From Tubulanus polymorphus (lineage: Eukaryota; Nemertea; Palaeonemertea; Tubulaniformes; Tubulanidae): 64,000 bases of DNA. The notes under the pieces were generated by a model. It was given only the letters and a program-made list of their open reading frames with translations, was not told the DNA's origin and made no database searches. The position numbers were made by a program, and so were the translations under genes. Positions 31,605 through 50,450 of the stretch are shown piece after piece. The stretch covers positions 3,015,855-3,079,854 of the forward strand of contig NC_134030.1 of the NCBI RefSeq assembly GCF_964204645.1. Direction: 5' to 3'. Position 1 is the first letter of the stretch. Each line of letters starts with the position of its first letter.

Positions 31605-33940
31605 AATACTGGATCAGATATAATCCTGAAACCGTTACTTTGAATATAGAATAATATCAATCGTTCGCCATACGACCACGTATTTTCTATTTCAGAAACC
31701 GCAGCCACCACAAAGCTTTCGTGTGTGTGAAAATGATTGAATCTAATGAAATCGATGATGAAATGTCGTCTATACACATATTCGTTACTTTCAGATTTTT
31801 AGCTGACGAACAACTTTTTTGTAACTGAATTATGGCCTAAGGGTCGATAGTGAGACGATGCGATTCGTACACGAGCTGAGGATATGAAACTGCAGGGTAT
31901 GTGTGCGTGTGCGTGTGTGTAAAAAAGCAACACGAATAAGGATAATTCAGACCCCTACCCCGACAGTTCCACAGTTGCGAATTAAGATTCGACCCCATTT
32001 TGATTTTAACACAGAGTTAACCCTAACTCACAACTGCGAAACTGGATTCAATTGTCGACCATGATTATTTGACTCGAGCGTAAAATAGATTTTATTGCGG
32101 GACTTATTCGCCCTAATCATAGTTTCGGAAATGAGTGTAGCTGACTCCTCTGGAATCTGCGATCAGTAGTATACGACTGTGTAGATTGTATATAAAGCTT
32201 TCCTCGGTCGATGCCGTGACTCTAAACGTGTATCTGATACTGCGACGTTTGAGCGAATCAATCATTTTATTATGTTTGTTTCTGTCCAACTAATCCGTTT
32301 CGATTAACTAGAATATACAAGGCGTTCAAAGTGATATGAGCTTAAGTAAAATGCATTTACGCCCGTGTGTTACGTTTACAAATAAAGCTCAGTATGATAC
32401 CAGTTGCGGATACCAACCAATACAGGTCCCATATATTTTGATTGGATTTAGTAAAATACTAAGTAAAGATATCTTCTGCAAAAATTCTTGATCCACAGGA
32501 CGATTTCACTGGAACCTTTTGCAGTGCAGCTGCACGGTGCAGCGTGATAGACATAATAATTCAATATAATGATGATGATAATTACCTTACATAGAAACCA
32601 AATTGGAAATGATAATATCAGTGATGATAATACAAATTATAATAATTATTATTACTATTGATCCTTAAATCATAATAGTATCATAAGATTTATATTATAT
32701 TATTTATTGTCAACAATATTACGCAATATATGTGTTATTTTTCAAGGCTTCAATAAAACTTCAAGTTAGTTTTCTGGTTTCTTTCTAGCAGGTGAGATAC
32801 TGTGATACTGCAGTAAGGCACAAAACTGGAAACATCCGTATAAGTGGATTAGAAGTGATCGGGATCTGAGTCTATATTATATTCTATGCAGGCGTTCATC
32901 GATATGTGTCATGTCAAATGTGACGTCACCCAATACGACAGCGAATCATCCAATCACAACAAGCACCGCCAAGTCGTCATCAACGACCGTCATCGTTCAA
33001 ATCGAAAAACAATACAGTTTATTCGGTTTAGGTAAGAGATAATAAAAAACGCGTGGGGAAGGCGAAACAACTGTCTTCATCACTAAGAATACAGCAGTGT
33101 ACCTGCACCATAATATCATTTTGGTACGATGTGTTATTGAGATATGACCGCAATGTGCAATGTACTATCGAAAAAGCGTTTGCCGGGACGCCTGAACCCA
33201 GGGGCTCAAGAACGTTGAAACACAATATTGAGGGAAATATAAAATTCCACACTAAGGATGCGACGAGTCCGAAATATTTCCTTTATCTATAATAATTTAA
33301 TCAGATGTTTGAAGTATATCTGAAGATGACTAGTCTAAGTCCAAATGTCGAATAGATTATCATCTCAAGCAAATTATCATTTCTCAAATAATTATCATCT
33401 CTCAGACTGTTCGGTTTACCTTTGCTTATTCTTAGGGTAGGATTTTATAATATCTTTAAACAACATTAACAGTCTTTCAGCGTTTCTTAATGGTTGATAT
33501 AGCGATGAATCCGTGAACGCGTTCTCAAATGTTTTGATACTTTCTCAGTTTGTATCAAAAATATTGCCCATTTTTGGTCCTTAAGTCCTGAAAAATTATT
33601 TATTTTCAGCACAAATTCATACAAACGTGTAATCTATACCACAAAAAACTTTATAAGGCGGACCAATTTATGATGTTATGTGTGGGCCATAGAGCTCAAT
33701 ATCTGCCTGCGATCACAACTTTCAATTAAGATTACGTAAGCTACTCGTGCCCATAATGCGGCAGGTACTACGAAATAAATCCCAGGACGTGGAACCCATG
33801 TAGATTTACTGCGTGTCGTTTCACCTCGAAACACATCAATAGAACAGTGAACTCAAAACGACCCCATTGCTTAATTAGAATTATTGGAATATTCACTAAA
33901 TCGAATGAATTTCTAATTATTTGTTGATTATTTCATGCAG

Positions 33941-34644
33941 GTGACAGGGCCAGCGAGGAACTGTTAAACGTTATATGGGTAACATCAGCGATAGTATTAG
34001 GAGTCGGAATAGTAATTATGGTAATGATCGGAGCCACTCATTTTGTTCTTCGTCTACGGCGTCGAATGAAACACGACTATATCGCGGATAACGCGTCGCT
34101 CGACGATATCGGCGAATTCACCGAGCAAGGTTTGACTTTGCGTAGTATTAAGATTCAACAAGATTTCAGCGATTTCGACGTAGGCTCGGTATCTATGCAG
34201 CCTATCGATGATTTTCTAAACGACAATATGGGCTACGAAACGGACGATATGGAGGACATGATAATGCCGGGCAGTCGGCGACCTTCGTCGACGTTCGGGA
34301 CGAGTTTCCGCGATCGGAAAGGTTCGGATCGCAGCGGCGGAAATCGTACTAATAAACCGGGCATCAGGGGGGAATCTAAGAAGCATCGATCGACGAGCAA
34401 AAGTTCGGATCGTTTTACTTCATCGGCTGGGAAGTTATTAATCACGGATAATCATCATTTGACCACGGATGATCGACATTATCGAAAGACGTCTGACGAT
34501 GGCAGTTACAACGGTCGATATTTGAATCCGGCGCAGTCGCAAAAAGAACAAACAGTCGCGATAATCAGTTCGGACATGCGCAACGATACGATTCGACCTC
34601 AACCGAATCCGAATAAACCGACTCATAAGCCGGTCAGGTTTTGA
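33941..34644 (+). CDS. Last exon of an unrecognised single-pass membrane protein
   Basis: The acceptor TTTCATGCAG is followed by two bases finishing a codon, then 233 residues and TGA. A hydrophobic helix (VIWVTSAIVLGVGIVIMVMI, residues about 10-29) is followed within a dozen residues by a basic stop-transfer stretch LRLRRRMK. A cytoplasmic tail of about 190 residues follows, first acidic (DDIGEF, SDFDVGS, ETDDMEDM), then Ser/Arg/Lys-rich and disordered, ending PTHKPVRF. This is the plan of a type I receptor or adhesion protein whose ectodomain is encoded upstream. I do not recognise the family. A polyadenylation signal candidate is AATAAA at 35490. Confidence 0.6.
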
Positions 34645-36354: not shown

Positions 36355-36460
36355 CAACTGCTCATCTGTTCAAATTAAACTGCAAAAACAGTCGTTTTGA
36401 GTTACTCGTTTACAGCCCCTCATCCAACTATTTTCTAACGTCAATATAGCTATTCTTATT
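36355..36460 (+). promoter_or_regulatory. Conserved upstream block of peptide gene A
   Basis: This block (TCCAACTGCTCA ... CAACTATTTTCTAACGTCAA ... ATAGCTATT) recurs upstream of gene B on the minus strand (43640-43500) and again on the plus strand at 43683-43775. Conservation between otherwise diverged upstream regions, at a similar place relative to the gene, suggests a promoter or first transcribed segment. No unambiguous TATA box is assigned. Confidence 0.45.
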
Positions 36461-36625
36461 TTATGATCAATTCAGCGATTGACATGGACATTGAAATGCA
36501 AGCAGTCTATACCCGGTACTCAATCTAGACAATATGGACGTATATACTTACTATATGAACGTATTGGAGTGAAAAAAAATCGATCACTTCATCAAATCGA
36601 TCACTTCAAGTCTATGTTTGGTCAG

Positions 36626-38502
36626 CTAACACTTGCGCTAGGCCTGTGGGTCCATATAACCAAGAGTCAGAACTGATGATCATGACTCGAATCAGTTGTT
36701 CTACCAAACACGTAAGTAAAAGACATGTAGATATCACAACTTGGCGAGGCCATAATGTTCGCTGTAGCGGGTCGGGTGAGACGAGTCACGACTGTTCGCT
36801 GTAGCGGGTCAGGTGAGACGAGTCCCGACTGCTCGCTGTAGCGGGTCGGGTGAGACGAGTCAGGACTGCTCGCTGTAGCGGGTCAGGTGAGACGAGTCCC
36901 GACTGCTCGCTGTAGCGGGTCGGGTGAGACGAGTCAGGACTGCTCGCTGTAGCGGGTCGGGTGAGACGAGTCAGGACTGCTCGCTGTAGCGGGTCGGGTG
37001 AGACGAGTCAGGACTGCTCGCTGTAGCGGGTCGTGTGAGACGAGTCAGGACTGCTCGCTGTAGCGGGTCGGGTGAGACGAGTCAGGACTGCTCGCTGTAG
37101 CGGGTCGGGTGAGACGAGTCAGGACTGCTCGCTGTAGCGGGTCGGGTGAGACGAGTCAGGACTGCTCGCTGTAGCGGGTCAGTTGAGACGAGTCAGGACT
37201 GCTCGCTGTAGCGGGTCAGGTGAGACGAGTCAGGACTGCTCGCTGTAACGGGTCGGGTGAGACGAGTCAGGACTGCTCGCTGTCGGGTGAAACGAGTCTG
37301 GACTGCTCGCTGTAGCGGGTCATGTGAGACGAGTCTGGACTGCTCGCTGTAGCGGGTCAAGTGAGACGAGTCAGGACTGCTCGCTGTAGCGGGTAAGGTG
37401 AGACGAGTCAGGACTGCTCGCTGTAGCGGAACGGGTGAAACGAGTCTGGACTGCTCGCTGTAGCGGGTCATGTGAGACGAGTCTGGACTGCTCGTTGTAG
37501 CGGGTCATGTGAGACGAGTCAGGACTGCTCGCTGTAGCGGGTCAGTTGAGACGAGTCAGGGCTGCTCGCTGTAGCGGAACGGGTGAAACGAGTCTGGACT
37601 GCTCGCTGTAGCGGGTCAGGTGAGACGAGTCCTGTGATTGTATTTTGGGTTAAGCGTATAAAATGCCTGGATCTATTTGGGCCACTTGATGGTTCTTAAT
37701 TGAATTTGTAATTTATTTCAATTTTCGTGTCATCAATATAGGAGCGATTTCTACAAGTATCTGCTGTACAATGATCAGTAAGTATTCTAGATCCAGGTTC
37801 CAAGTTGTCACTTACCGTTAACATTCGGGTCGAAACAGATCATTTTTATTGTTTCAACTCCAGTCTAAACAGTTAAATTTTAACTTAAGCTATGTCCTGG
37901 TAACATGTATATTATCTGAACGATCGTTTTTTTTTGTGGTTGGATTTTTTTTTTTGTCGAGTTCGTCGTATCGTGGCTGGCTATTGCTTAGTGATCTGGA
38001 TTCAGATCCACAGTTCTAAATTGAATATGACCTTTAAAGTTATATGATTGGAAATGAGCTGATTTAACTCGCTGAGTTAACAGTAACTCACAACTGTGGA
38101 CCCGGGCCCCGATGGTATTTGCGAGAGTGCGCGGGGTCTTAATCGTATGGTTCTGATAGATTTAGAGGTGGTCATCTTGATGTTCCTCAGTTGCAGAACC
38201 TTGTTAAAAAGATGGACCCCGACCAACCGGGAAACCGGTCAGTGAGGAGACCCTAATACTACTACCGCGGTGGTTGGCTCGAACATATGTAAAAGTCTAC
38301 CTAAACTTATCAAAATTGTTTTATTTCTACAAAATAGCGCACTGTCACTGTTCATCAATCGACTCTATACATTTCAGGAAACGTTTTGCGTCTTGCACTT
38401 TTTATTGCGTCTGTAATGGCCATGGCGGTCGCTGAAAATAATGAAACACCTTTAGAGAGAATTGCTCGATGTGATCATAATGGAGCATGCAATTGTGGAT
38501 AG
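36626..38502 (+). CDS. Peptide gene A: 43-residue secreted Cys peptide precursor
   Basis: Exons: 5' UTR exon about 36626-36711 (donor CAC/GTAAGT), mini-exon 37742-37777 whose last seven bases ATGATCA start translation, and final exon 38378-38502 to the TAG. The 43-residue product has a hydrophobic signal peptide ending MAMAVA (residue 21), an acidic spacer (ENNETP), the family motif LERIAR, then a ten-residue end CDHNGACNCG with three Cys. Cleavage after the Arg is plausible, and the final Gly could be an amidation donor. AATAAA is at 38669. Copy D is almost identical in signal and UTRs. A secreted toxin, antimicrobial or signalling peptide is inferred from architecture only. The TTCAG before 36626 may be an acceptor, implying an earlier exon. 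Confidence 0.75.
36757..37632 (+). repeat. 37-bp satellite array A, about 24 copies
   Basis: The unit core is CTGCTCGCTGTAGCGGGTC followed by GGGTGAGACGAGTCAGGA, 37 bases, with point variants and one shortened unit near 37277. It starts 46 bases after the gene A exon-1 donor and fills most of intron 1. Each unit contains a five-pair stem CTCGC/GCGGG around TGTA. Open frames within it are artefacts. Confidence 0.97.
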
Positions 38503-38576
38503 ATGGAAGAATGAACCAATCTTCAATTACTGTCATTAAAAAAAAAACATCTCAGTGTTAGTTATTTCTAGAAGAA

Positions 38577-38628
38577 ACGGTTGTATCAATGAATCCTCTG
38601 TAGAGATGTGATTCATAGAAACAGCCGT
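38577..38628 (+). other. Conserved 3' UTR hairpin, gene A
   Basis: ACGGTTGT pairs with ACAGCCGT (one G-U), and ATGAATC pairs with GATTCAT around a loop containing CTCTGTAGAG. The same element sits between stop codon and AATAAA in every family member (about 39329-39383 plus, about 40921-40869 minus, about 47634-47698 plus), and in decayed form near 39900-39815 minus. Confidence 0.7.
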
Positions 38629-39112
38629 ATTTTCATAAGAATGTACTGAATGTGATGACTGTAATTAGAATAAAGATGAATGAATAACATGATAAAAAAT
38701 TGACGTATTGCGTTTATTTGTACGAATGACACTCGTAGTGACATTTGCTACGATTCTATGGCGTGTTATGTTAAAATTGAATGTTTTAAGTTTATTTCAC
38801 TCATCGTTCGTTTTTAAAGTTATCAAATCATAGAAATACCAACATCCGTTGCCATTGTCACGCAGCTGAGAGCAGAGGCAGCAACTTATGATTATTGGAC
38901 TTTCTTTTTTCGAGTTTTTCTTTGTCATTCGACCTAGAAATCATTCGAGCAATTATCGGCTGAATTTTTGGGAACCGGCGACTGAATGCACGGTGGGCCT
39001 TATTGATATATATTGACCTAGAGGTTGTCACCGGGTAGTTAAACGTTGATGTTGTTTTAGGGTATAATAAATGCCACCTATGATAGAAGTACATATATTA
39101 CGTTTATTGCAG

Positions 39113-39258
39113 GTCACGTATTAGGCCATATTGTGCTTTATGGAGTTTTTGCGTTTCTCGCCATGGCTGTAGCCGAAGATGAAAATGCGAATCTGGATGT
39201 TACTTTAGAGAGAATTGCTCGACGAACTTGTGATTCACGTGGACAATGTGGCAGTTAA
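39113..39258 (+). CDS. Peptide exon C: orphan final exon, two-Cys type
   Basis: A TTTATTGCAG acceptor opens a frame in the same phase as the other family final exons. It encodes a signal-peptide core ending AMAVA, spacer EDENANLDVT, LERIARR, then TCDSRGQCGS and TAA. AATAAA is at 39423 and the 3' UTR hairpin is present. No matching mini-exon ATGATCA/GT or satellite array is visible between 38502 and 39113, yet gene A exon 2 upstream is phase-compatible. It is therefore either an alternative terminal exon of gene A or a partial duplicate. If spliced to a seven-base start exon the product would be 50 residues. Confidence 0.6.
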
Positions 39259-39744
39259 TCGACGACACAATGAACTAATCTTCAATTACTGTCATTAAAC
39301 AAACATCTTGTTAGTTATTTCTAGAAGAAACGGTTGAATCTATGAAATCCTCTGTAGAGATGTGATTCATAGAAACAGCCGTATTTTCATAAGAATGCAC
39401 TGAATGTGATGACTGTAATTAGAATAAAGATTAATATATAAAAATACAATTCAAAGTTTTGTGTTTATTTCACTCTGCGGCCTCAAAGTTATCAATCATG
39501 GCATTAACAACATCCGTTGCTATTGTTACACAATATTGAGAGCAGGCAGCAATCTGTAAATATTAGACTTTGTTTTTGCGACAGCCACGACACTAGAATA
39601 TATCAGAATGGAATGGCCTCCTGGTATCTTCCTACACCACCACCTAGTGGGCTTAGTTCTATCATGGACTCTAAAACGAAAGAGCCCATGGTTCTATTCA
39701 ACTCGGGTTCAAATATACAAACACAAGACGTTGAGTTGTATGTT

Positions 39745-39965
39745 TAAATATTCATCTTTATTCTCATTACGGTCACTATGTCCACTTAGAATTCTAAATC
39801 ATTGTTTAAAATACGGCTGTTTTTGTATGAATCCATATATTACATCATCTCTACTGAGGATGTCATTAATACAACCGTTCCTTCTAGAAATAACTACAAG
39901 ACGTTTATTAGATGACAGTACGTTCGTTCCATCTATCCACATTTGCAGTCTTTTCCATTTTTTCC
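39745..39965 (-). pseudogene. Decayed peptide-gene 3' end (relic P)
   Basis: On the minus strand the end of a final exon survives as GKDCKCG plus TAG, followed by the family 3' UTR: TTATTTCTAGAAGGAACGG, a degenerate hairpin and an AATAAA (plus TTTATT at 39757). The signal-peptide part and acceptor are replaced by unrelated AT-rich sequence, so the copy is broken. Overlapping plus-strand frames (39517-40012) are antisense shadows. Confidence 0.6.
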
Positions 39966-40822
39966 TTTTATTTTATTTTAGAAAGAAAATTAGTATATCT
40001 AAATGTGCTTAGAAGGTAACTAGATATGTGGGCTGAGTTCCTTTCAATGTAAAGATCCTTTGGTCCGATGTGAATTTTTCAGACAGCCCAAAAATAGTCT
40101 TGAATACATTTAAACATTTTACATTTTGTGGTGTGTGATATTTCACAAAATTTTGACATCTGGCTATAAGTGGATCATATTTCGAATTTGCAGTACGACT
40201 GAACAAACTAACCCTACAATACGTCGTTTCACGCTTCTCCGTGCGTTAAATATTCACATCATCCATCAAAACTATTAAGCTTTCCTACTGCTAAAAGTTC
40301 ATATGCATTTTCGCTATATACCGACAATAACTAGAAGCATTCCGAATAGATCATTCCAGTGAATAAGGGAAGGCCTTTTGTGATCTTTCTCGACACAAGG
40401 AAAGAAAATTATCCTCAATTCAACTTGCCTCCATCGAATGGAAAGAAAACTCATTTTGTAACGTAGTGGTTAAAACGCCTACTTTAGATTTCGTGTCTGT
40501 GACGTCGTAAGATTGTTGTTGGAGATTGTGCGTACAACAGAAGATAATCTATAGTCGTTTACTAATTTCAAAGATTTTTCACGTAACCATCGTGTTTGAC
40601 CGTCAATATATAATATAAGGTGGCATCGTCGCGAGATAGAAGTACATTGGTGGCTATAGTAATCCCCTCAATAAGGAATCACTAACGGACAATAGACAAT
40701 AGACTGTGTTGCGGGAGGGGGCTAGTGACGTGATTTGAAGTAAGAAAATTAAATGTCATTCCAGGTTTCGTTCGTACAAACAAACACACAATACATTGAT
40801 TTATATGTTTTATCTATTCATC

Positions 40823-42839
40823 TTTATTCTAATTACAGTCATCACATTCAGTGCATTCTTATAAAAATACGGCTGTTTCTATGAATCACATCTCTACAGA
40901 GGATTTCATAGATACAACCGTTTCTTCTAGAAATAACTAACACTGAGATGTTTTTTAATGACAGTAATTGAAGATTAGTTCATTGTGTCGTCGATTAACT
41001 GCCACATTGTCCATTTGAATCACAAACTCGTCGAGCAATTCTTTCCAAAGAAATATCCAGATTTTCATTTTCATCTTCATCGGCTACAGCCATGGCGACT
41101 GATGCAAAAATACCACACAGCGCAAGTCCTAATATGTGTCCTGAAATACACATAATATATGTACAGTCGAAGCCCGTTATAATCACACTATTTTAGACCA
41201 ATGGTAAACATTGGCAGCTTTATAAAGAACGGTATTTTCCATGAATTAAGGTTAGATTGAGCGAATTTGTTCCCTGAAAAGAATATTTGCGTTTAGTGAG
41301 CAATGGCAACTATTTACGTTTGATACTTGCAGTGACAATGATCAATATCAGTAAGGCCCAGTGCGCACTCAGTCACCGGTGCACAAAAACTCCACGACCG
41401 ATTTGGCCACGTATGATGGCGTTGGCTGATATCAAACTTGTTGAATGATAGTAGGGAATTATATCAAGACAGCAGACTTTATACGAACCCCAACCTTTTC
41501 AAACATATTTTATTAATAAAAACCAAAAATAGAGCCGAACTTCGTAAATTGTGTATTTTTATTGGTAAAATTATGAGATTTTTCACTTTTCCTTAAAAAT
41601 CAGACTCAAATTGTCTTTGTATTAAGACCACGAGTTTGTCAAATAAGTTAAAGTAAAGTAAAGTAAAGAATATTTTTGTCGGCCCGACACTATCGAACAG
41701 CAAAGCAAATACATCGGTCATCGTAATGGCTGCTGGGTATCCGACAAATACCCGCGCGAGGAGCGTTAGCGCTCGAGGATTTAACCAAACGTGTCATAAC
41801 CTATAGCAAGCGAATGATCGAGAAAAAAATCATTCAGACCTATACATGTTTGAATACAAACTAAAATACTTACTAATCATTGTTCAGCAGATTATGAAGT
41901 TGAAATCAACCTACAAATATATAAAAACGACATGAATATTATCAAATTTGCAAACATCCGGGCACTTTTTCACAAAACAAAATATTCTGTGAACGTTATG
42001 AAGCTTAAATAGCTTCCTCAACGAGATAATGCAAAGCACCAGTTGAGCAGTACTGACTCATGTCACCTGACCCGCTACAGCGAGCAGTCCTGACTCGTCT
42101 CACCTGACCCGCTACAGCGAGCAGTCCTGATTCGTCTCACCCGACCCGCTACAGCGAGCAGTCCTGACTCGTCTCAACTGACCCGCTACAGGGAGCAGTC
42201 CTGACTCGTCTCACCTGACCCGCTACAGCGAGCAGTCCTGACTCGTCTCACCCGACCCGCTACAGCGAGCAGTCCTGACTCGTCTCACCTGACCCGCTAC
42301 AGCGAGCAGTCCTGACTCGTCTCACCCGACCCGTTACAGCAAGCAGTCCTGACTCGTCTCACCTGACCCGCTACAGCGAGCAGTCCAGACACGTCTCACC
42401 TGACCCGCTACAGCGAGCAGTCCTGACTCGTCTCAACTGACCCGCTTCAGCGAGCAGTCCTGACTCGTCTCAACTGACCCGCTTCAGCGAGCAGTCCTGA
42501 CTCGTCTCACCCGACCCGTTACAGCGAGCAGTCCTGACTCGTCTCACCTGACCCGCTACAGCGAGCAGTCCTGACTCGTCTCAACTGACCCGCTACAGCG
42601 AGCAGTCCTGACTCGTCTCACCCGACCCGCTACAGCGAGTAGTCCTGACTCGTCTCACCCGACCCGCTACAGCGAGCAGTCCTGACTTGCTATAGCGAAC
42701 ATTAAGGCCTCGCGAAGTTGATATCTACGTGTCATTTACTTACGTGTTTGGTAGAACTAACTGATTCCAGAAGTGATGATGATGATGATCAGTTCTTGCT
42801 CTTGTTTATGTGATATCACGGGCCCAGTGACAGCGTTGC
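40823..42839 (-). CDS. Peptide gene B: 50-residue secreted Cys peptide precursor
   Basis: Minus-strand copy with all parts: 5' UTR exon 42839-42744 (donor CAC/GTAAGT), satellite array in intron 1, mini-exon 41910-41874 ending ATGATTA/GTAAGT, final exon from 41140 with TAA at 40997-40995, and AATAAA at 40828-40823 closing the 3' UTR. The product has a signal peptide ending SVAMAVA, spacer DEDENENLDIS, LERIARR and the end VCDSNGQCGS. Two Cys four residues apart would allow one small disulphide loop. It is closest to exon C. The RR before the Cys segment resembles a dibasic processing site. The family is unrecognised. Confidence 0.75.
42061..42700 (-). repeat. 37-bp satellite array B, about 17 copies
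   Basis: Same unit as array A in reverse complement, matching the reversed orientation of gene B. It begins about 44 bases after the gene B exon-1 donor. Units vary at the same positions as in the other arrays (GGGTCGG/GGGTCAG/GGGTCAGT). Confidence 0.97.
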
Positions 42840-43499
42840 CTGAACAAACAATGTGTTAGTTGATTGTAGAAGAGATCAATATTTCGATGGGATCTCATCG
42901 CATATGTATATGATGATATGACGTGGCAAATTTTCAAACATGTAAAAACATTTTTTTCATGACGGTTAACTACGTGTGACTTTGATAACCAAAACATACG
43001 AAAATGTATTACTGGTGTTTTATTCTTTCGATCTTTCAAAGTTCTATTGTGTCTTACATCAACCACCATATACCAGCTACCCAACCAGATGGTGAGAAAT
43101 ATTTCATTTCACTCATCTCTCTTTGCTCCAGAATGAGAGAAATGTAGAAGAAATTGAACGCGGGAACCTAGCGAACCTAGCGGCTCCTCTCTCGAATCCT
43201 CAATTGCCTCAGTAGCGTTGAAGGTCCAATTTACCTGGTATAGGGAAACTCGATTCAATAGCACCGCCCCACCGAATTTGGTTTAAGAATACGTACAAGA
43301 AAAATGAGCTTTAAGAAGGAGGACATCTGCGAGTAGAAAATTAGCATAATTGTTATAAATTCTTTCTTGGTGTCGTGAAAATAACTGTAATTTTTTGAAA
43401 TGGCAATTCGGGTCACATTGGATTAGTTAATCTACGCATTATGAATGATTCGATTTTATCATAAATGTCAATCGCCGAATTGACAGGGAATGCTGAATA

Positions 43500-43775
43500 A
43501 TCTAGCTAGATTTACGTTGGAAATAGTGGGATGAGGGAGCTTCAAACGAGTAACTCGAAACGATTGTTTTAGTAGTTTAATTTGAACAGTCGTGCAGTTG
43601 GACTGCGGAATGGAAATATGAATCCATTAAATCTATAAACATGAAGTAAATGAAAATATGCAGAATATCTAAAATATCACACTAATGTCCAACTGCTCAA
43701 ATGAAACTGCAAAAACACTCGTTTGGAGCTCCCACACCCAACTATTTTCTAACGTCAATATAGCTATTTTCTACT
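43500..43775. promoter_or_regulatory. Head-to-head duplicated upstream block
   Basis: The upstream block of peptide gene A occurs here twice, divergently: minus 43640-43500 (toward gene B) and plus from 43683 (toward gene D). Both keep TCCAACTGC, TTAAACT/GAAACTGC and the CAACTATTT/CCACTATTT segment, about 40 bases apart. It looks like a palindromic junction between inverted gene copies that could serve as a bidirectional promoter. Confidence 0.5.
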
Positions 43776-43930
43776 TGTCAGCGATTTACATTCAAAATAA
43801 AATAGAAGCATTCAGCAATATTTCTAATATCCAAAACCCCCTGTATACTTGTATTACAGACATGTGCTTTTGCGAAGTGACTCACCCGATATTATTGGTT
43901 AGCATACGAAATCATTTACATGACAGCTAA

Positions 43931-45890
43931 GTTTGTAAATCCCTTGCAGGCGCGGATTCAATGGGGAGCCCAGCCGGCCCGAGCCCCCCTTTTTCAAGCT
44001 TTATTTCTCGGGTGAAGGAAGCATATGGAATGTTACTGAAATGATTGTGAGCATCATTAAATACAGCAGTAACAGTAACCGAGTAGTATATATATGGTTA
44101 TTTTAAATACTGCCACCAAACGTATATAATCTGAAAGACACATATCTCTCTTTTGAAAAATCCTCTGGAAAACGATGGAATTTGACAACAGTTGAGCGAT
44201 GGTTTCAGTAAAAGTTATGACAGCCTGCTTAGTCATAGCCATGCCGCGGCCAGGATGAGTGTTAATAGGCCTAATTTTATGATGAGCGCTGAGCGGGAAC
44301 GTGTCCGCCCTAGAAGTCGTGGGCGATGTAATAGATCAATGAATGGTTTGCGGCCAGGATGTGTATTGGCGTGAGCGCGAGCAGGCGGCAATCAAACCCT
44401 GGCAAGTGAGGATGGCTGCAAATAGTCCCAAAACATTTTCATATTCTTAATTCACAAACAGCGGGAGTAATCAGAATCGCTACATAAGTCAATGTGAAAA
44501 GATCTCTGATCTTGCGCTTATAGGTAGCCTTGCTCGTGCAGAACTGGCGCGCTTTTGGTTGCGATTTCGATTTCTCGTCCGAGTCAAGCATGACCTAAAG
44601 CGCTAATGCTAAACTGCCGTGATGACGAGAGATAGGCTACTTACACGAAAAGGCCCCGTTTAAGAATTTTCGGAAGGCATTACAGGGGCATCCTCCCCCG
44701 GCAGGGATTCGAACCTGATGGCATCGAGATTGCCACGGCACGAAACCCTGCCATAATCGACCGTGTGCGCAGATACAGGCGCAGTTCAGATGATGTGATT
44801 TTTAGCCAATCAGAAATCCCGTTTTATTTTAGCCCGGGTTTTCCCATTTATAGTTCATCCTTGAAATTTTCCTCAACGATTATACAACGAGCAATCTGAT
44901 TGGTGCCGCCAGTTTTCGTTCGGAAAGCTGCGCATGTACCTGCGCACCCGGTCTAGTGTGGCAGGGGTTCGTGCCGTGGCTGAGTGTAGTGATGCCATCA
45001 GGTTCGAGTCCCTGCAGAGGGAGGATGTTACAGGGTCTGCTAGCCACCCTATTCACCCCCTAGATCCGCCCCTTAAACCCCTAGGAGACTTCGCATCTAC
45101 GGCGCTCGTCTCGCGTCGGCGCAGGTATAGTTTAGCATTTTCTTTCAACTCAGCCCCCCACCCTATCCAGAAATCCTAGATCCGCCCTTGCTTGGTTTCT
45201 TTGTCAGCCGATGGCAAGTCTCAAGCATGGTTGCTTGGCAAAAAACTGTTATGTCGCGTGCAAGACCTGTGTAGGGCCAGTTATCGGGGCTAGTAAACTG
45301 TCAAACACGGAATCATTTACAAAAAGTGGGAACCACTTCTTCCACCCTGATGAGAAATAGAATTCATTTTGCTACACGGCGCAAGTTAGAATGCGAGGTA
45401 ATCGGCCCCGTGACAGTCTATACGCTATAGGGACCTATATACTTTTGCAGTATAGACCTAGATACTTTAGTAAACTTTTTTTATTCTTCCTGATTTTTCC
45501 TTTCATAAACAATACAAAAATAAACCGTTCCGAAAAATCACCGCACAAAAACGCAAAGAAATTCGACGCCAAAAGAGTTCGTTTTGCGGACGTATTTGCG
45601 TGAAAAAACGGTATATATGTATAATAGAATTCTATGTGTTTCGGTCAAGTACACGCACTCAGAATCTTGAATGTTACTCACGCCCTGAATTACAAGACTT
45701 TTCAACTAAGACGTGTTCTTTTAGTAGATATCACTCGATCTCCGGTTCTTTCCACAATATTGTGAAGGCTGCACAAGATTTCACAGAATGTATATTAGTG
45801 AGACAGTGCATTTTTCTGTATCTCAAACACGTGATATTATAATTTCCATTTTGCAACGGTTCAAAAACCATCAAATTGATCATTTCAGTA
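43931..45890. other. Repeat-rich insert before peptide gene D
   Basis: Between the plus-strand promoter-like block and gene D lie SINE-like fragments (44690-44765 minus, 44950-45030 plus), a GGCAATCAAACCCTGGCAAG repeat at about 44386 (also near 58333, and reversed near 18672), and a CCTAGATCCGCCC-type element edge. No gene is seen. It may be transposon insertion that separated gene D from its promoter. Confidence 0.5.
44950..45030 (+). repeat. tRNA-derived SINE fragment
   Basis: GTGCCGTGGCTGAGTG resembles an A box, and ATCAGGTTCGAGTCCC is a B box. A reverse-strand relative is at 44690-44765 (GGATTCGAACCTGATGGC on plus). It does not fold as a full tRNA, so it is not called as one. Confidence 0.55.
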
Positions 45891-45929
45891 AACAGAGCAT
45901 CGATTGATCATAATGTATTGTTTGTTCAG

Positions 45930-47568
45930 CTAACACTTGCGCTGGGTCTGTGGGTCCATATAAACACGAGAGTGAGAACTGATGATCATGACTCGAATCA
46001 GTTGTTCTACCAAACACGTAAGTAAAAGACATGTAGATATAACAAAGACTTTACGACTTAGTGAAGCCAGGACTGCTCGCTGTAGCGGGTCAGTTGAGAC
46101 GAGTCAGGACTGCTCGCTGTAGCGGGTCAGGTGAGACGAGTCAGGACTGCTCGCTGTAGCGGGTCAGGTGAGACGTGTCTGGACTGCTCGCTGTAGCGGG
46201 TCAGTTGAGACGATTAAGGACTGCTCGCTGTAGCGGGTCAGGTGAGACGAGTCAGGACTGCTCGCTGTAACGGGTCGGGTGAGACGAGTCAGGACTGCTC
46301 GCTGAAGCGGGTCAGTTGAGACGAGTCAGGACTGCTCGCTGAAGCGGGTCAGTTGAGACGAGTCAGGACTGCTCGCTGTAGCGGGTCAGGTGAGACCTGT
46401 CTGGACTGCTCGCTGTAGCGGGTCAGGTGAGACGAGTCAGGACTGCTTGCTGTAACGGGTCGGGTGAGACGAGTCAGGACTGCTCGCTGTAGCGGGTCAG
46501 GTGAGACGAGTCAGGACTGCTCGCTGTAGCGGGTCAGGCGAGACGAGTCAGGACTGCTCGCTGTAGCGGGTCGGGTGAGACGAGTCAGGACTGCTCGCTG
46601 TTGCGGGTCAGGTGAGACGAGTCAGGACTGCTCGCTGTAGCGGGTCGGGTGAGACGAGTCAGGACTGCTCGCTGTAGCGGGTCGGGTGAGACGAGTCAGG
46701 ACTGCTCGCTGTAGCGGGTCGGGTGAGACGAGTCAGGACTGCTCGCTGTAGCCGGTTAGGTGAGACGAGTCAGGACTGCTCGCTATAGCGGGTCAGGTGA
46801 TGAAGCTGTCTGTAATGTTCACAGCCAATGATCTATTGTTGAGACAAATAGTCATATAGTCGTAGTAAAACATGTCTTATTTATAAAAACGATCTTAATT
46901 TTGATTCAGTGAATAAAATGCCTGGATCTATGCGGGCCACTTGATGGTTCTTAATTGAATTTGTAATTTATTTCAATCCTCGTATTTTCCTGTAGGTGCG
47001 ATTTTTACAAGTATCTGCTGTACAATGATCAGTAAGTATTCTAGATCCAGGTTCACGGTTGTGAGTTACAGTTAACTATGAGTCCAAATAGTTCATTTTC
47101 AAAGTTCAAAAATATCTGAATGATCGGTCGTTCGACTTTTTTTGTCGAGTGAGATGTTTGCCGTAGTGACATCGTAGCTGAGTTAAACCCGCTTTTGGCT
47201 TGGAAATCTGATATTTGCGAGAGTGTTTGATATGTTGCTCCTCAGTTGGGGAATCCCGTTAAAAAGATGTGGCCCCGACAAACCGGGAGCTCGGTCAGTG
47301 AGGAGACCCTAATACTACTGCCGCGGTGGTTGGCTCGAACATCGTAAAAGTCAACTTGGTATAAACTTATGAAAGTTGTTTTATTTTTACAAAATAGTGA
47401 TCTGTCACTGTTCATCAATCGACTCTATACATTTCAGGAAACGTTTTGCGTCTTGCACTTTTTATTGCGTCTGTAATGGCCATGGCGGTCGCTGAAAATA
47501 GTGAAAAACCGTTGGAGAGAATTGCTCGACTGGATTGTAATCATAATGGAGCATGCGATTGTGGATAG
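45930..47568 (+). CDS. Peptide gene D: 45-residue secreted Cys peptide precursor
   Basis: Exons: 5' UTR exon about 45930-46017 (CAC/GTAAGT), mini-exon 46996-47031 ending ATGATCA, final exon 47438-47568 with TAG. AATAAA is at 47739. The signal peptide is identical to gene A; the spacer ENSEKP, LERIAR and end LDCNHNGACDCG differ, with three Cys again and a terminal Gly. Intron 1 holds satellite array C. Intron 2 matches gene A intron 2, including a conserved block CAGTGAGGAGACCCTAATAC before GCGGTGGTTGGCTCGAACAT. High similarity outside the peptide end points to recent duplication or conversion with gene A. Confidence 0.75.
46068..46801 (+). repeat. 37-bp satellite array C, about 20 copies
   Basis: Same 37-base unit in the same orientation relative to transcription as in genes A and B, starting about 50 bases after the exon-1 donor of gene D. 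Variants such as GAAGCGGG and GTAACGGG recur in several units, suggesting local amplification. Confidence 0.97.
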
Positions 47569-47769
47569 ATGGAACAATGAACTAATCTTCAATTATTGTC
47601 ATCAAATAAACATCTGTAGTTATTTCTAGAAGAAACGGTTGTATCAATGAGATCCTCTGTAGAGATGATGTAAGAAGTGGATTCATAGAAACAGCCGTAT
47701 TTTCATAAGAATGTACTGAATGTGATGACTGTAATCAGAATAAAGATTAATGAATGATATAATTAAGAA

Positions 47770-50003
47770 TAGACATATTGCGTTTATTTGTACGAATGAC
47801 ACTCGTAGTGACATTTGCTCGGATTCTATTGCATGCGTTTCGCTGCGAAGAATAAACTTCAAGCGATTGGCTTTTCAAGAAAGCGCACGAGGAACACGAG
47901 TCAATGACATAGTTTGTAAATCACACGATCCTTCCACAAAACACACTGCTATTTTCAGAATTATTTTTTTCGTCTTAGAATAGGGATTGTGCATTTTGTC
48001 TAATTTGTTTTGATGTGGTATCCTCAACAAACCCTGCACACCTGCCGGGAACGAAAAGGAGGTTCAGGATTCTTTTAACCATTGTACTTCATGTAGTTTC
48101 GTAGGTTCACTTATTCTTCCTAAACTCCTCAGAATTCATATATTCGACGGATATTCGAGTTCAAAACCACGAATCGAAAAAGTAAAAATCAAACTCAACA
48201 TATTTTGCATATTATCCGTATTTATTACAATGTCTTCGAAATAAGGTTTATAATTTCAAGCTACTTTGGGATTGACCGAAACATTCAGACACCGATCATT
48301 GAAAAGCTTATATTCGCTATTCCGTGTATTAATCAGTAAGTACACTTCAGGTGAGGGTACAACAAAAAGCGATGATAGTCTCGAGAAAACGATCAACACC
48401 AAGCCAAATAAAGCGATTCCACAATCAATCCAGTTTTTTTGATTTGTTTCAGCTCCTGTTCACACTATGTTCATCACTACCGATCGAATTCCTTCCAGAA
48501 AAGCATTATTATTTATCAATAATCATATGGCTGTACGTAAACTGTTTCGGTATGAATTTCACAAATGGTATTTTTCTCAACGGTTTCAACTGGTGTCGAC
48601 TGCATTTTCGATAGAAATTCACACAGGACGCAATAAAAGCTGAAAATATATTCGAAAAGCGTGATTTTAAAGTTAGGAAATTACTGGCAAAAGGTCCCGA
48701 GGATATAAACGGATTGATCGCCCTCCCGCAGCGAAATCAATATCAATCAGAAACTAAATCAACGTTTATTGGAAAATTCCAAAGGGTAAGATTTATTACA
48801 TTTTCATTCGCAGGTTGAAATAATTCCTGCTGTATCCCAGGTGTTGTCCGTATGCAATCATGTCTGAAAACTATTTCATTTTTCCTGCAGAAAAATGCAT
48901 TTAATATCAGGTTGGTCTTAGTTGTACACGATGGAGTGATGTTCAGAGGTTAGAGGAAGGCCCGGCGCCCATGTACATGCACTGGATGATATTTTTAGGC
49001 TTACATTTTGCGGGCCAATTCAAATCAATGAAGGAAAAGCGAAACTATTCGTATAGTTAGTTCTATTTCTTTCTTCGAGAGGACCTACACTTATTTCATA
49101 AATAAACAGTGGACAAATTGTACAAGATATTCGCCATTCCAACAGGTACATGTACGTACCGGGTATATACTTTGACTAATAATTTGCAGGGGAAGAAAGC
49201 TTTTTGACCGACCGTTGGTGCGCGGCCGTAATTTTCTGATGAATAATGTTCTCTTTGATGAGCGTCGTAGCCACTGACTGCGCCTAAATTGCGTATAGCT
49301 TTTATCTCTAACTTATACCTCAACTTAACAGCGAAATTGACCCAAAAATATGTTTTTACATATACACAATCAGTGCGGCAGGGACATACAGTCATACGTG
49401 ACAGTGAAATGGACATTCCATCTATATATCAGACTACATTTGCGAACCACCAACTGATTTTTTGGTTTGTCTATTAATCAACGGAGGACTTTTTCCTGAG
49501 ACAAAATCGAAAATGTATATAGTAAGAATAAGCACTGATTCTATAATGATTTTCCTATACCGAATAATAACATTCGTTTTAGAGCTTTGATTCGACAATC
49601 AATAAACATGAAAAGAGATAATTATTTTACAACAAAATGTACTTTTCATTGTCTATGCGTGTATCAGTTTTTCCGGTGTGTTTCCATACAACTGGCGCGT
49701 CTACAAAATCGACCAGTTACAGAAAATCAGATTTTGTTTGTTTCTGGAGCGATGTCTCACGGGCGGCTGGCAACTATATCGCGGTCGAAATGTGAAACCC
49801 CATCGGGAAAAACTGCTTCCATTGAATTCGTTTACCCCTACCTAACCTTATCTGTGTATATATATATATATATATATGTACAGTACGGCAGATATCTTTT
49901 AAGATACCTAATCATTTTTAAACCCACGTAGTTCATATGTTACTTGGAATCGTCGTGATGTTCGCTGACCATGACCGTTTTAACTTACTTTAGACACATA
50001 TCT
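47770..50003. other. Non-coding stretch after the peptide cluster
   Basis: 47770-47835 matches downstream sequence of gene A (38700-38760), so the duplicated unit extends past the poly(A) signal. A dispersed repeat (TTAGAATAGGGATTG ... CACCTGC) at about 47975-48060 recurs near 57510-57620. A short (TA)n lies at 49856-49876. No gene is supported. Confidence 0.5.
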
Positions 50004-50360
50004 TTAATCTTTGATTTCACCGCTGTCGCTGTTTTCTGTCTGCGAACCGAACGGTTCCTGCGAAAACCCGAATCGCGAGCACGTGTTCATTGCGTGAACG
50101 CAGTACATTCTGGCCTGGTTTGCCACGTCTATCGAGTCGTCCATCGCGCCGCCGTCGACCCTTTTGCCGAAAAGTAAATTCGAATTGCGCTTCCCGAAGA
50201 CGAGTCCCGACCCTCTTCGACTGAATTCGTTGGCGCGTTTACGACCGAACAGCAGCGAAGAGCGCTTCTCACCGAATCGAATCTTCTTTCCGCTGGAGAA
50301 ATCCAGCACTAGCAACATGGCGAAAATGAAAATAACGCAAACTTTATAAGTTGACTGCAT
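50004..50360 (-). CDS. Neuropeptide precursor with LLF/LVF-amide repeats
   Basis: The 118-residue secreted prohormone starts at the ATG four bases after a strong acceptor (TGTTTTTCAG, exon from 50364), so an upstream 5' UTR exon exists. Signal peptide: QSTYKVCVIFIFAMLLVLD, cleaved near FSSG. Then come amidation/dibasic sites in series: IRFGEKR, SSLLFGRKR, ANEFSRR, GSGLVFGKR and NSNLLFGKR. Predicted mature peptides are short amides ending LLF or LVF. A C-terminal spacer contains two Cys (MYCVHAMNTC) and an acidic tail. Short N-terminal Phe-amides plus a Cys pair near the C-terminus recall SIFamide/FFamide precursors, but the SIF or FF core is absent, so orthology is not claimed. The secreted peptides would act on GPCRs. 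Confidence 0.85.
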   Translation of the reverse strand: MQSTYKVCVIFIFAMLLVLDFSSGKKIRFGEKRSSLLFGRKRANEFSRRGSGLVFGKRNSNLLFGKRVDGGAMDDSIDVANQARMYCVHAMNTCSRFGFSQEPFGSQTENSDSGEIKD

Positions 50361-50450
50361 GACTCTGAAAAACATAAACAGAACGACATGTTGTGAATTT
50401 CAATGCAATTCGTCTTTACGTAAAAGTTACAATAATCTAAAGAGATTTGT

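What the first reader, a model, noticed from the sequence alone, without database searches (positions are those of the whole stretch)
36355..47770. Undescribed cluster of tiny secreted Cys-peptide genes in both orientations
Three complete genes (A plus, B minus, D plus), one orphan final exon (C) and one relic (P) share a three-part plan that gene finders would miss: a non-coding leader exon, a mini-exon with only seven coding bases, and a final exon of 125-146 coding bases. All share a signal peptide, an acidic spacer, LERIAR and a 10-12 residue Cys end. I cannot match it to a named family.
Basis: partly seen in the sequence, partly recalled or inferred. Interest (0 to 1): 0.88.

Follow-up and report, generated by a model that had tools for sequence, protein, structure and literature searches.

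The report
Genome-wide family of tiny secreted peptides
The stretch holds four members and one relic of what looks like a large, so far unnamed animal gene family that makes very short secreted peptides closed by a cysteine loop; the delivery part is kept nearly constant while the released peptide varies, as in cone-snail toxin genes.

Summary
A, B, C and D belong to a superfamily spread over this 268-Mb genome: 40 loci match at E<=0.01, counting A, B and D (C: 0.011). Of 38 final exons counted, 37 have an R/K-x-x-R/K site, and 36 of those tails (about 8-19 residues) have two or three Cys (C-x3-6-C). 24 of 34 loci outside the window carry the 7-coding-base mini-exon (ATGATNN|GTAAG; antisense control 0 of 34, downstream 1 of 34). 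Signal and spacer are conserved; the tail diverges three to four times faster at nonsynonymous sites, with synonymous change raised too, as published for conotoxins. Here all three parts lie on one exon. The cluster's 3'UTR is more alike than the coding exon in 5 of 6 pairs and folds into one long hairpin. No relative was found in the libraries and papers searched. Best reading: prepropeptides cut by a furin-type protease to release single-disulfide peptides, diversified like venom, defence or recognition peptides. Transcription, tissue, target and species are not shown.

The parts
36625..36659 (+). gene A core promoter: GCTAACACTTGCGCT element and TATAA in GTCCATATAA
   Evidence: identical in D; promoter role inferred
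36685..36711 (+). gene A non-coding leader exon (5' end inferred, donor after 36711)
   Evidence: donor CAAACAC|GTAAGTAAA shared by A, B, D
36759..37631 (+). 37-bp minisatellite in intron 1 of A, 23.8 copies
37742..37777 (+). gene A exon 2 (36 nt, last 7 coding ATGATCA)
38378..38502 (+). gene A final exon, coding part; tail CDHNGACNCG
38503..38677 (+). gene A 3'UTR, one long hairpin up to AATAAA
   Evidence: z -6.4; alignment
39113..39258 (+). gene C orphan final exon; tail TCDSRGQCGS
   Evidence: no ATGATNN|GTAAG between A and C
39259..39431 (+). gene C 3'UTR hairpin
   Evidence: z -4.0
39754..39959 (-). relic P: end of coding tail plus decayed 3'UTR
40820..40994 (-). gene B 3'UTR hairpin
   Evidence: z -5.8
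40995..41140 (-). gene B final exon; tail VCDSNGQCGS
41874..41910 (-). gene B exon 2 (last 7 coding ATGATTA)
42045..42687 (-). 37-bp minisatellite in intron 1 of B, 17.4 copies
42744..42775 (-). gene B leader exon (5' end inferred)
   Evidence: donor at 42744, alignment
45929..45963 (+). gene D core promoter with TATAA
   Evidence: role inferred
45990..46017 (+). gene D leader exon (5' end inferred)
46068..46800 (+). 37-bp minisatellite in intron 1 of D, 19.8 copies
46996..47031 (+). gene D exon 2 (last 7 coding ATGATCA)
47438..47568 (+). gene D final exon; tail LDCNHNGACDCG
47569..47747 (+). gene D 3'UTR hairpin (weakest: 3 of 200 shuffles fold as well)
   Evidence: z -2.4

Best explanation
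A, B, C and D are members of a genome-wide gene superfamily of secreted mini-prepropeptides. Each transcript has a short leader, an exon 2 that ends in only seven coding bases (ATG ATN N), and one phase-1 final exon coding for signal peptide, acidic spacer, an R-x-x-R cleavage site (LERIAR in the window) and a short Cys tail. In the secretory pathway the signal is removed, a furin or proprotein convertase cuts after R-x-x-R, and the tail is released as a single-disulfide (C-x3-6-C) peptide; some end in Gly and may be amidated. The family grows by local duplication and dispersal, and its tail is diversified while signal and spacer are kept, so the products are most likely outward-acting gland peptides (venom-like, defensive or recognition) rather than one conserved hormone. 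Shown by sequence: gene plan, family, site, Cys pattern, divergence gradient. Inferred: transcription, signal function, processing, disulfide, amidation and role.
For: 40 loci at E<=0.01 on nine contigs (union). Mini-exon in 24 of 34 loci, antisense control 0 of 34, downstream control 1 of 34, plus 3 of 4 window genes. R/K-x-x-R/K in 37 of 38, and 36 of those 37 tails have 2-3 Cys, against 276 of 3149 (8.8%) 14-residue pre-stop tails in the window's six frames. Pooled over 12 pairs, amino-acid identity is 230/266 signal, 178/199 spacer, 104/155 tail; nonsynonymous differences per site 0.065, 0.048, 0.200. In 5 of 11 pairs, those with 3'UTR >85% alike, tail nonsynonymous change 16.5/137.8 exceeds 3'UTR change 29/728, Fisher p 0.001. 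Tail net charge: 10 negative, 14 zero, 13 positive of 37.
Against: No transcript or peptide data, and no signal-peptide program was available. dN does not exceed dS in the tail overall (pN 0.20, pS 0.23-0.26), so positive selection is suggested, not shown. 10 of 34 loci show no mini-exon within about 1.5 kb; one member (L053) has no Cys tail, and one (L020) no R-x-x-R-type site. The pattern search for the AMAVA[DE] codons gave 7 matches against 5 for its reversed control. The window's own subgroup keeps a C-x-x-N-G-x-C motif (C-x-x-R-G-x-C in C), shared with pairs on C4 and C9, which looks more like a constrained ligand than free diversification.
Confidence: 0.6

Rival explanations
1. A hormone or neuropeptide-like ligand family: small cyclic peptides with a conserved C-x-x-N-G-x-C core act on receptors of the animal itself; paralogue number reflects many receptors.
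For: NG-type core conserved between the window, the C4 pair and the C9 pair; 8 of 37 tails end in Gly, as amidation needs; C-x5-C is the commonest loop, 18 of 36.
Against: About 40 paralogues with widely differing tails; the cut site is mostly R-x-x-R, not dibasic, and there is one tail per precursor.
Confidence: 0.2
2. Antimicrobial peptides with a single disulfide.
For: Short, Cys-bearing, duplicated, apparently secreted.
Against: Net charge of the tails is near zero: 13 of 37 positive, none above +3.
Confidence: 0.12
3. The exons are cargo or parts of a mobile element, and the hairpin 3'UTR is the element's inverted repeat.
For: The 3'UTR is largely one palindrome; copies lie in both orientations beside a shared minisatellite.
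Against: Only five DNA-level copies found in 268 Mb, all in this cluster; of 28 distant members folded, 2 have a hairpin at z below -3; gene plan and coding frame are kept.
Confidence: 0.05
4. C is not a broken gene but an alternative last exon: the leader and mini-exon of A can splice to the final exon of A or of C, since every final exon starts in the same phase.
For: C has acceptor, frame and poly(A) signal but no mini-exon of its own; an in-phase acceptor is present in the 34 loci counted.
Against: No transcript data; C may simply have lost its 5' part.
Confidence: 0.3

Closest known systems
Conotoxin gene superfamilies (Conus), as in PMC3862624
   Same: Conserved signal, propeptide, variable Cys tail; both Dn and Ds rise toward the mature part (section 22 of that paper; here); intron 1 is phase 1 in all the superfamilies of that paper but I2 (passage), as the intron here.
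   Different: Conotoxin precursors spread signal, pro and mature parts over 2-3 exons (abstract); here all three sit on one final exon after a 7-base coding mini-exon. No conotoxin model among Pfam hits at E<=0.1. Most tails here have only two Cys.
Contryphans and other single-disulfide peptides (recalled, no call)
   Same: Short peptide closed by one disulfide; C-x5-C is commonest here.
   Different: No sequence relation tested; core residues differ (recalled).
Schistosoma micro-exon genes (MEG), PMC10526429
   Same: Secreted, multigene (35 genes), very short exons (abstract).
   Different: MEG genes are built of short exons of 3-81 bp with long introns (abstract); here there is a single coding micro-exon and then everything is on one exon. 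The abstract describes no Cys tail or R-x-x-R plan; the rest of the paper was not read.

Membership tests
Conotoxin superfamilies | match to a conotoxin sequence model | tested here: not met
   no conotoxin model among Pfam hits of 30 members at E<=0.1; very short proteins give such models little to score
Conotoxin superfamilies | signal / pro / mature parts on separate exons (A superfamily: two exons) | tested here: not met
   all three on one exon; conotoxin structure from the abstract of PMC3862624
Conotoxin superfamilies | conserved signal with fast-changing Cys-bearing tail | tested here: met
Conotoxin superfamilies | made in a venom gland of a cone snail | not testable with these tools
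   species unnamed, no expression data
Micro-exon genes (MEG) | gene built of many short exons | tested here: not met
   one 7-base coding micro-exon, then one final exon
Furin/proprotein-convertase processed prepropeptides | R-x-x-R-type site before the bioactive tail | tested here: met
   37 of 38 members, allowing R or K at either end; cleavage itself not tested
Furin/proprotein-convertase processed prepropeptides | cleavable N-terminal signal peptide | tested here: inconclusive
   hydrophobic start followed by A-x-A and acidic residues, judged by eye; no signal-peptide program was run
Transposable element | dispersed DNA-level copies | tested here: not met
   the 5 DNA copies found all lie in the cluster
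Cationic antimicrobial peptides | net positive charge | tested here: not met
   13 of 37 tails positive, 14 zero, 10 negative, range -3 to +3

The most novel reading that the evidence does not exclude
An undescribed conotoxin-like superfamily of hypervariable one-disulfide peptides, in an animal that is probably a protostome. A 7-base start mini-exon and uniformly phase-1 final exons form a cassette system in which one promoter can be spliced to different final exons, and a sharp mutability boundary lies inside a single exon, at the protease site.
Probability: 0.25. Interest if true: 0.85.

Novelty: new variant of a known kind. Interest (0 to 1): 0.72.

Why it matters
If transcribed, this is a source of about 40 short disulfide peptides in one genome that ordinary gene finders would probably miss, because only seven coding bases precede the last intron. 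It also bears on an old question. In cone snails the contrast between constant signal and variable toxin has been linked to their lying on different exons (PMC3862624, section 22). Here the same contrast appears inside one exon with a coding part of under 200 bases, so separate exons are not needed.

Tried and rejected
Selenoprotein with SECIS element: rejected, because the stops of A-D are TAG or TAA and Rfam found nothing above its thresholds in the window. Transposon or MITE: disfavoured. Covariation of the 3'UTR hairpin: four near-identical sequences give no power, so I did not count it. 3'UTR hairpin as a family trait: rejected; of 28 loci outside the window that were folded (of 34 counted), only L044 and L057 reach z below -3. 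The 5.8-billion-protein search may hold few animal proteins, so absence there is weak. The search with D missed B and C of its own cluster, so family counts are lower bounds.

Rows left out of counts: of 40 loci at E<=0.01, A, B, D and 34 others were counted, with C added (38); L052 (no in-phase acceptor at a sensible place) and two loci on C6 at 17.82 and 18.33 Mb (never read) were not. L033 (E 0.016, no acceptor) and L037 (unrelated frame) were read and dropped. Many loci L001-L073 are the same place fetched twice or more and were counted once. In one search the tail of L018 is cut too early by the script's rule (20 residues instead of 13). Pairs are not all close: L044/L045 share 3 of 12 aligned tail residues and raise both rates; L054 is in two pairs.

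Full report
What is there. The window lies at C6:3015855-3079854 of an unnamed 267.8-Mb genome in 77 contigs. A (+) has exon 2 at 37742-37777 ending in ATGATCA and a final exon at 38378-38502. D (+) has 46996-47031 and 47438-47568. B (-) has 41910-41874 and 41140-40995. C (+) is a final exon at 39113-39258 with no mini-exon of its own. P (-) keeps only the last codons and a decayed 3'UTR (39959-39754). Aligned, the precursors share a hydrophobic start, AMAVA, an acidic spacer, LERIAR and a Cys tail: A CDHNGACNCG, D LDCNHNGACDCG, B VCDSNGQCGS, C TCDSRGQCGS.

Surroundings. Intron 1 of A, B and D holds a 37-bp minisatellite of 17 to 24 copies; allowing two mismatches, the 56 genome matches found all lie in these three arrays, and the reversed control has none. 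The leader donor is identical in A, B and D, and a 15-base element plus TATAA box is shared by A and D. All five copies have AGAATAAAGAT.

The 3'UTR. Between stop and poly(A) signal the RNA folds into one long hairpin in A (z -6.4), B (-5.8), C (-4.0) and, least clearly, D (-2.4, 3 of 200 shuffles as good). In 5 of 6 pairs it is more alike than the coding exon: A/B 163/171 against 78/125, B/C 170/172 against 121/143, D/B 151/168 against 83/128, A/C 157/169 against 73/125, D/C 155/168 against 75/128; A/D is the other way, 156/167 against 119/125. A DNA search with it found no copy outside this cluster, and of 28 other members folded only two have a hairpin at z below -3. Whether this is selection or gene conversion is open.

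The superfamily. A protein search of the own genome with D found, besides A, a weak match on C5 (E 0.035). Its frame reads ASVWAMAVAEEEKRDLDRVARLCNPYLDDCC-stop: same plan, new tail. Three searches with this and two further members gave 25, 43 and 34 matches at E<=10; merged they give 36 loci at E<=0.001 and 40 at <=0.01, A, B and D among them, C at 0.0113. The 40 lie on C2, C4, C5, C6, C7, C8, C9, C10 and C55, with nine members on C7 at 3.137-3.166 Mb and tandem pairs elsewhere. A degenerate DNA pattern for the AMAVA[DE] codons is a weak tool: 7 matches, 6 of them in family members, against 5 for the reversed control.

Same gene plan. Of 34 loci counted outside the window, 24 have ATGATNN followed by GTAAG upstream of the final exon within the roughly 1.5 kb held, against 0 of 34 on the antisense strand and 1 of 34 downstream. 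The pattern was relaxed after a first look, and close paralogues are not independent. Introns between mini-exon and final exon are 98 to 927 bases where both were seen. The same acceptor phase was required when choosing acceptors, and one locus, L052, has none at a sensible place.

The tails. 37 of 38 members have an [RK]xx[RK] site; of these tails 28 have two Cys, 8 have three and 1 (L053) none; the first loop is C-x5-C in 18 of 36, x6 in 9, x4 in 7, x3 in 2; 8 of 37 end in Gly; net charge is negative in 10, zero in 14, positive in 13. A C-[DN]-x-N-G-x-C core joins A, B and D with pairs on C4 and C9 (C has R for N), so the window's subgroup has a constrained tail.

Divergence. In 12 pairs identity is 230/266 in the signal, 178/199 in the spacer and 104/155 in the tail. 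Nonsynonymous difference is 0.065, 0.048 and 0.200, but synonymous difference also rises (0.102, 0.053, 0.230). This joint rise is what the conotoxin paper reports from exon to exon (PMC3862624: abstract, one passage and section 22 seen). In L047/L050 the 41 residues before the tail are identical with one synonymous change, while the tails share 7 of 13 and the flanking intron is 112/150 alike. In the five of 11 pairs with 3'UTRs over 85% alike the tail's nonsynonymous change (16.5/137.8) exceeds that of the 3'UTR (29/728), p 0.001 (sites taken as independent, and the threshold not fixed beforehand). Positive selection is therefore suggested, not proved.

Known or not. No homologue for A1 (no candidate reached scoring) or for A2, 30 members (509 candidates, none at E<=10) among 5.8 billion proteins; Pfam and NCBIfam gave only scattered matches at E 0.038 or worse; PDB sequences gave nothing better than E 1. 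Paper searches for LERIAR (58 papers hold it, 20 were listed, none on such peptides by title), for six other stretches (0 papers) and for words describing such a family (3 papers listed each; of these six the relevant ones by title are venom papers) found no description of it. Comparators were taken from listings and read as abstracts, one passage or one section.

Mechanism. Most likely: secretion, convertase cut after R-x-x-R, one disulfide, release. The role as outward-acting gland peptide is inferred from family size, tail turnover and neutral charge. I put about 0.85 on the processing model, about 0.5 on venom, defence or recognition together, about 0.2 on hormone, the rest on antimicrobial or unknown.

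Noticed in passing
window 50004-50399 (-): ORF with signal-like start and three spaced SxLxFG copies before basic sites (SSLLFGRKR, GSGLVFGKR, NSNLLFGKR): looks like a neuropeptide precursor giving SxLxF-amides; no Pfam hit; paper searches for such strings gave 0 papers and one on barnacle adhesive proteins.
   Followed up: partly
window 33928-34644 (+): ORF with one apparent transmembrane stretch and a long acidic, serine-rich tail; no Pfam match and none at E<=0.001 among proteins.
   Followed up: partly
G000 C7:3137472-3165846: Nine superfamily members within 29 kb; L054 has two mini-exon candidates upstream of one final exon, possibly alternative starts.
   Followed up: no
window 38217-38286 and 47273-47342: 70-nt element, 93% alike, in intron 2 of A and D (CCCCGACCAACCGGG...GGTGGTTGGCTCGAACAT), resembling a small repeat; copies elsewhere were not searched for.
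   Followed up: no
L069 and L018: On C5 the 3'UTRs of two paralogues are 145/150 alike while seven nonsynonymous and no synonymous changes separate their signal-spacer parts.
   Followed up: partly
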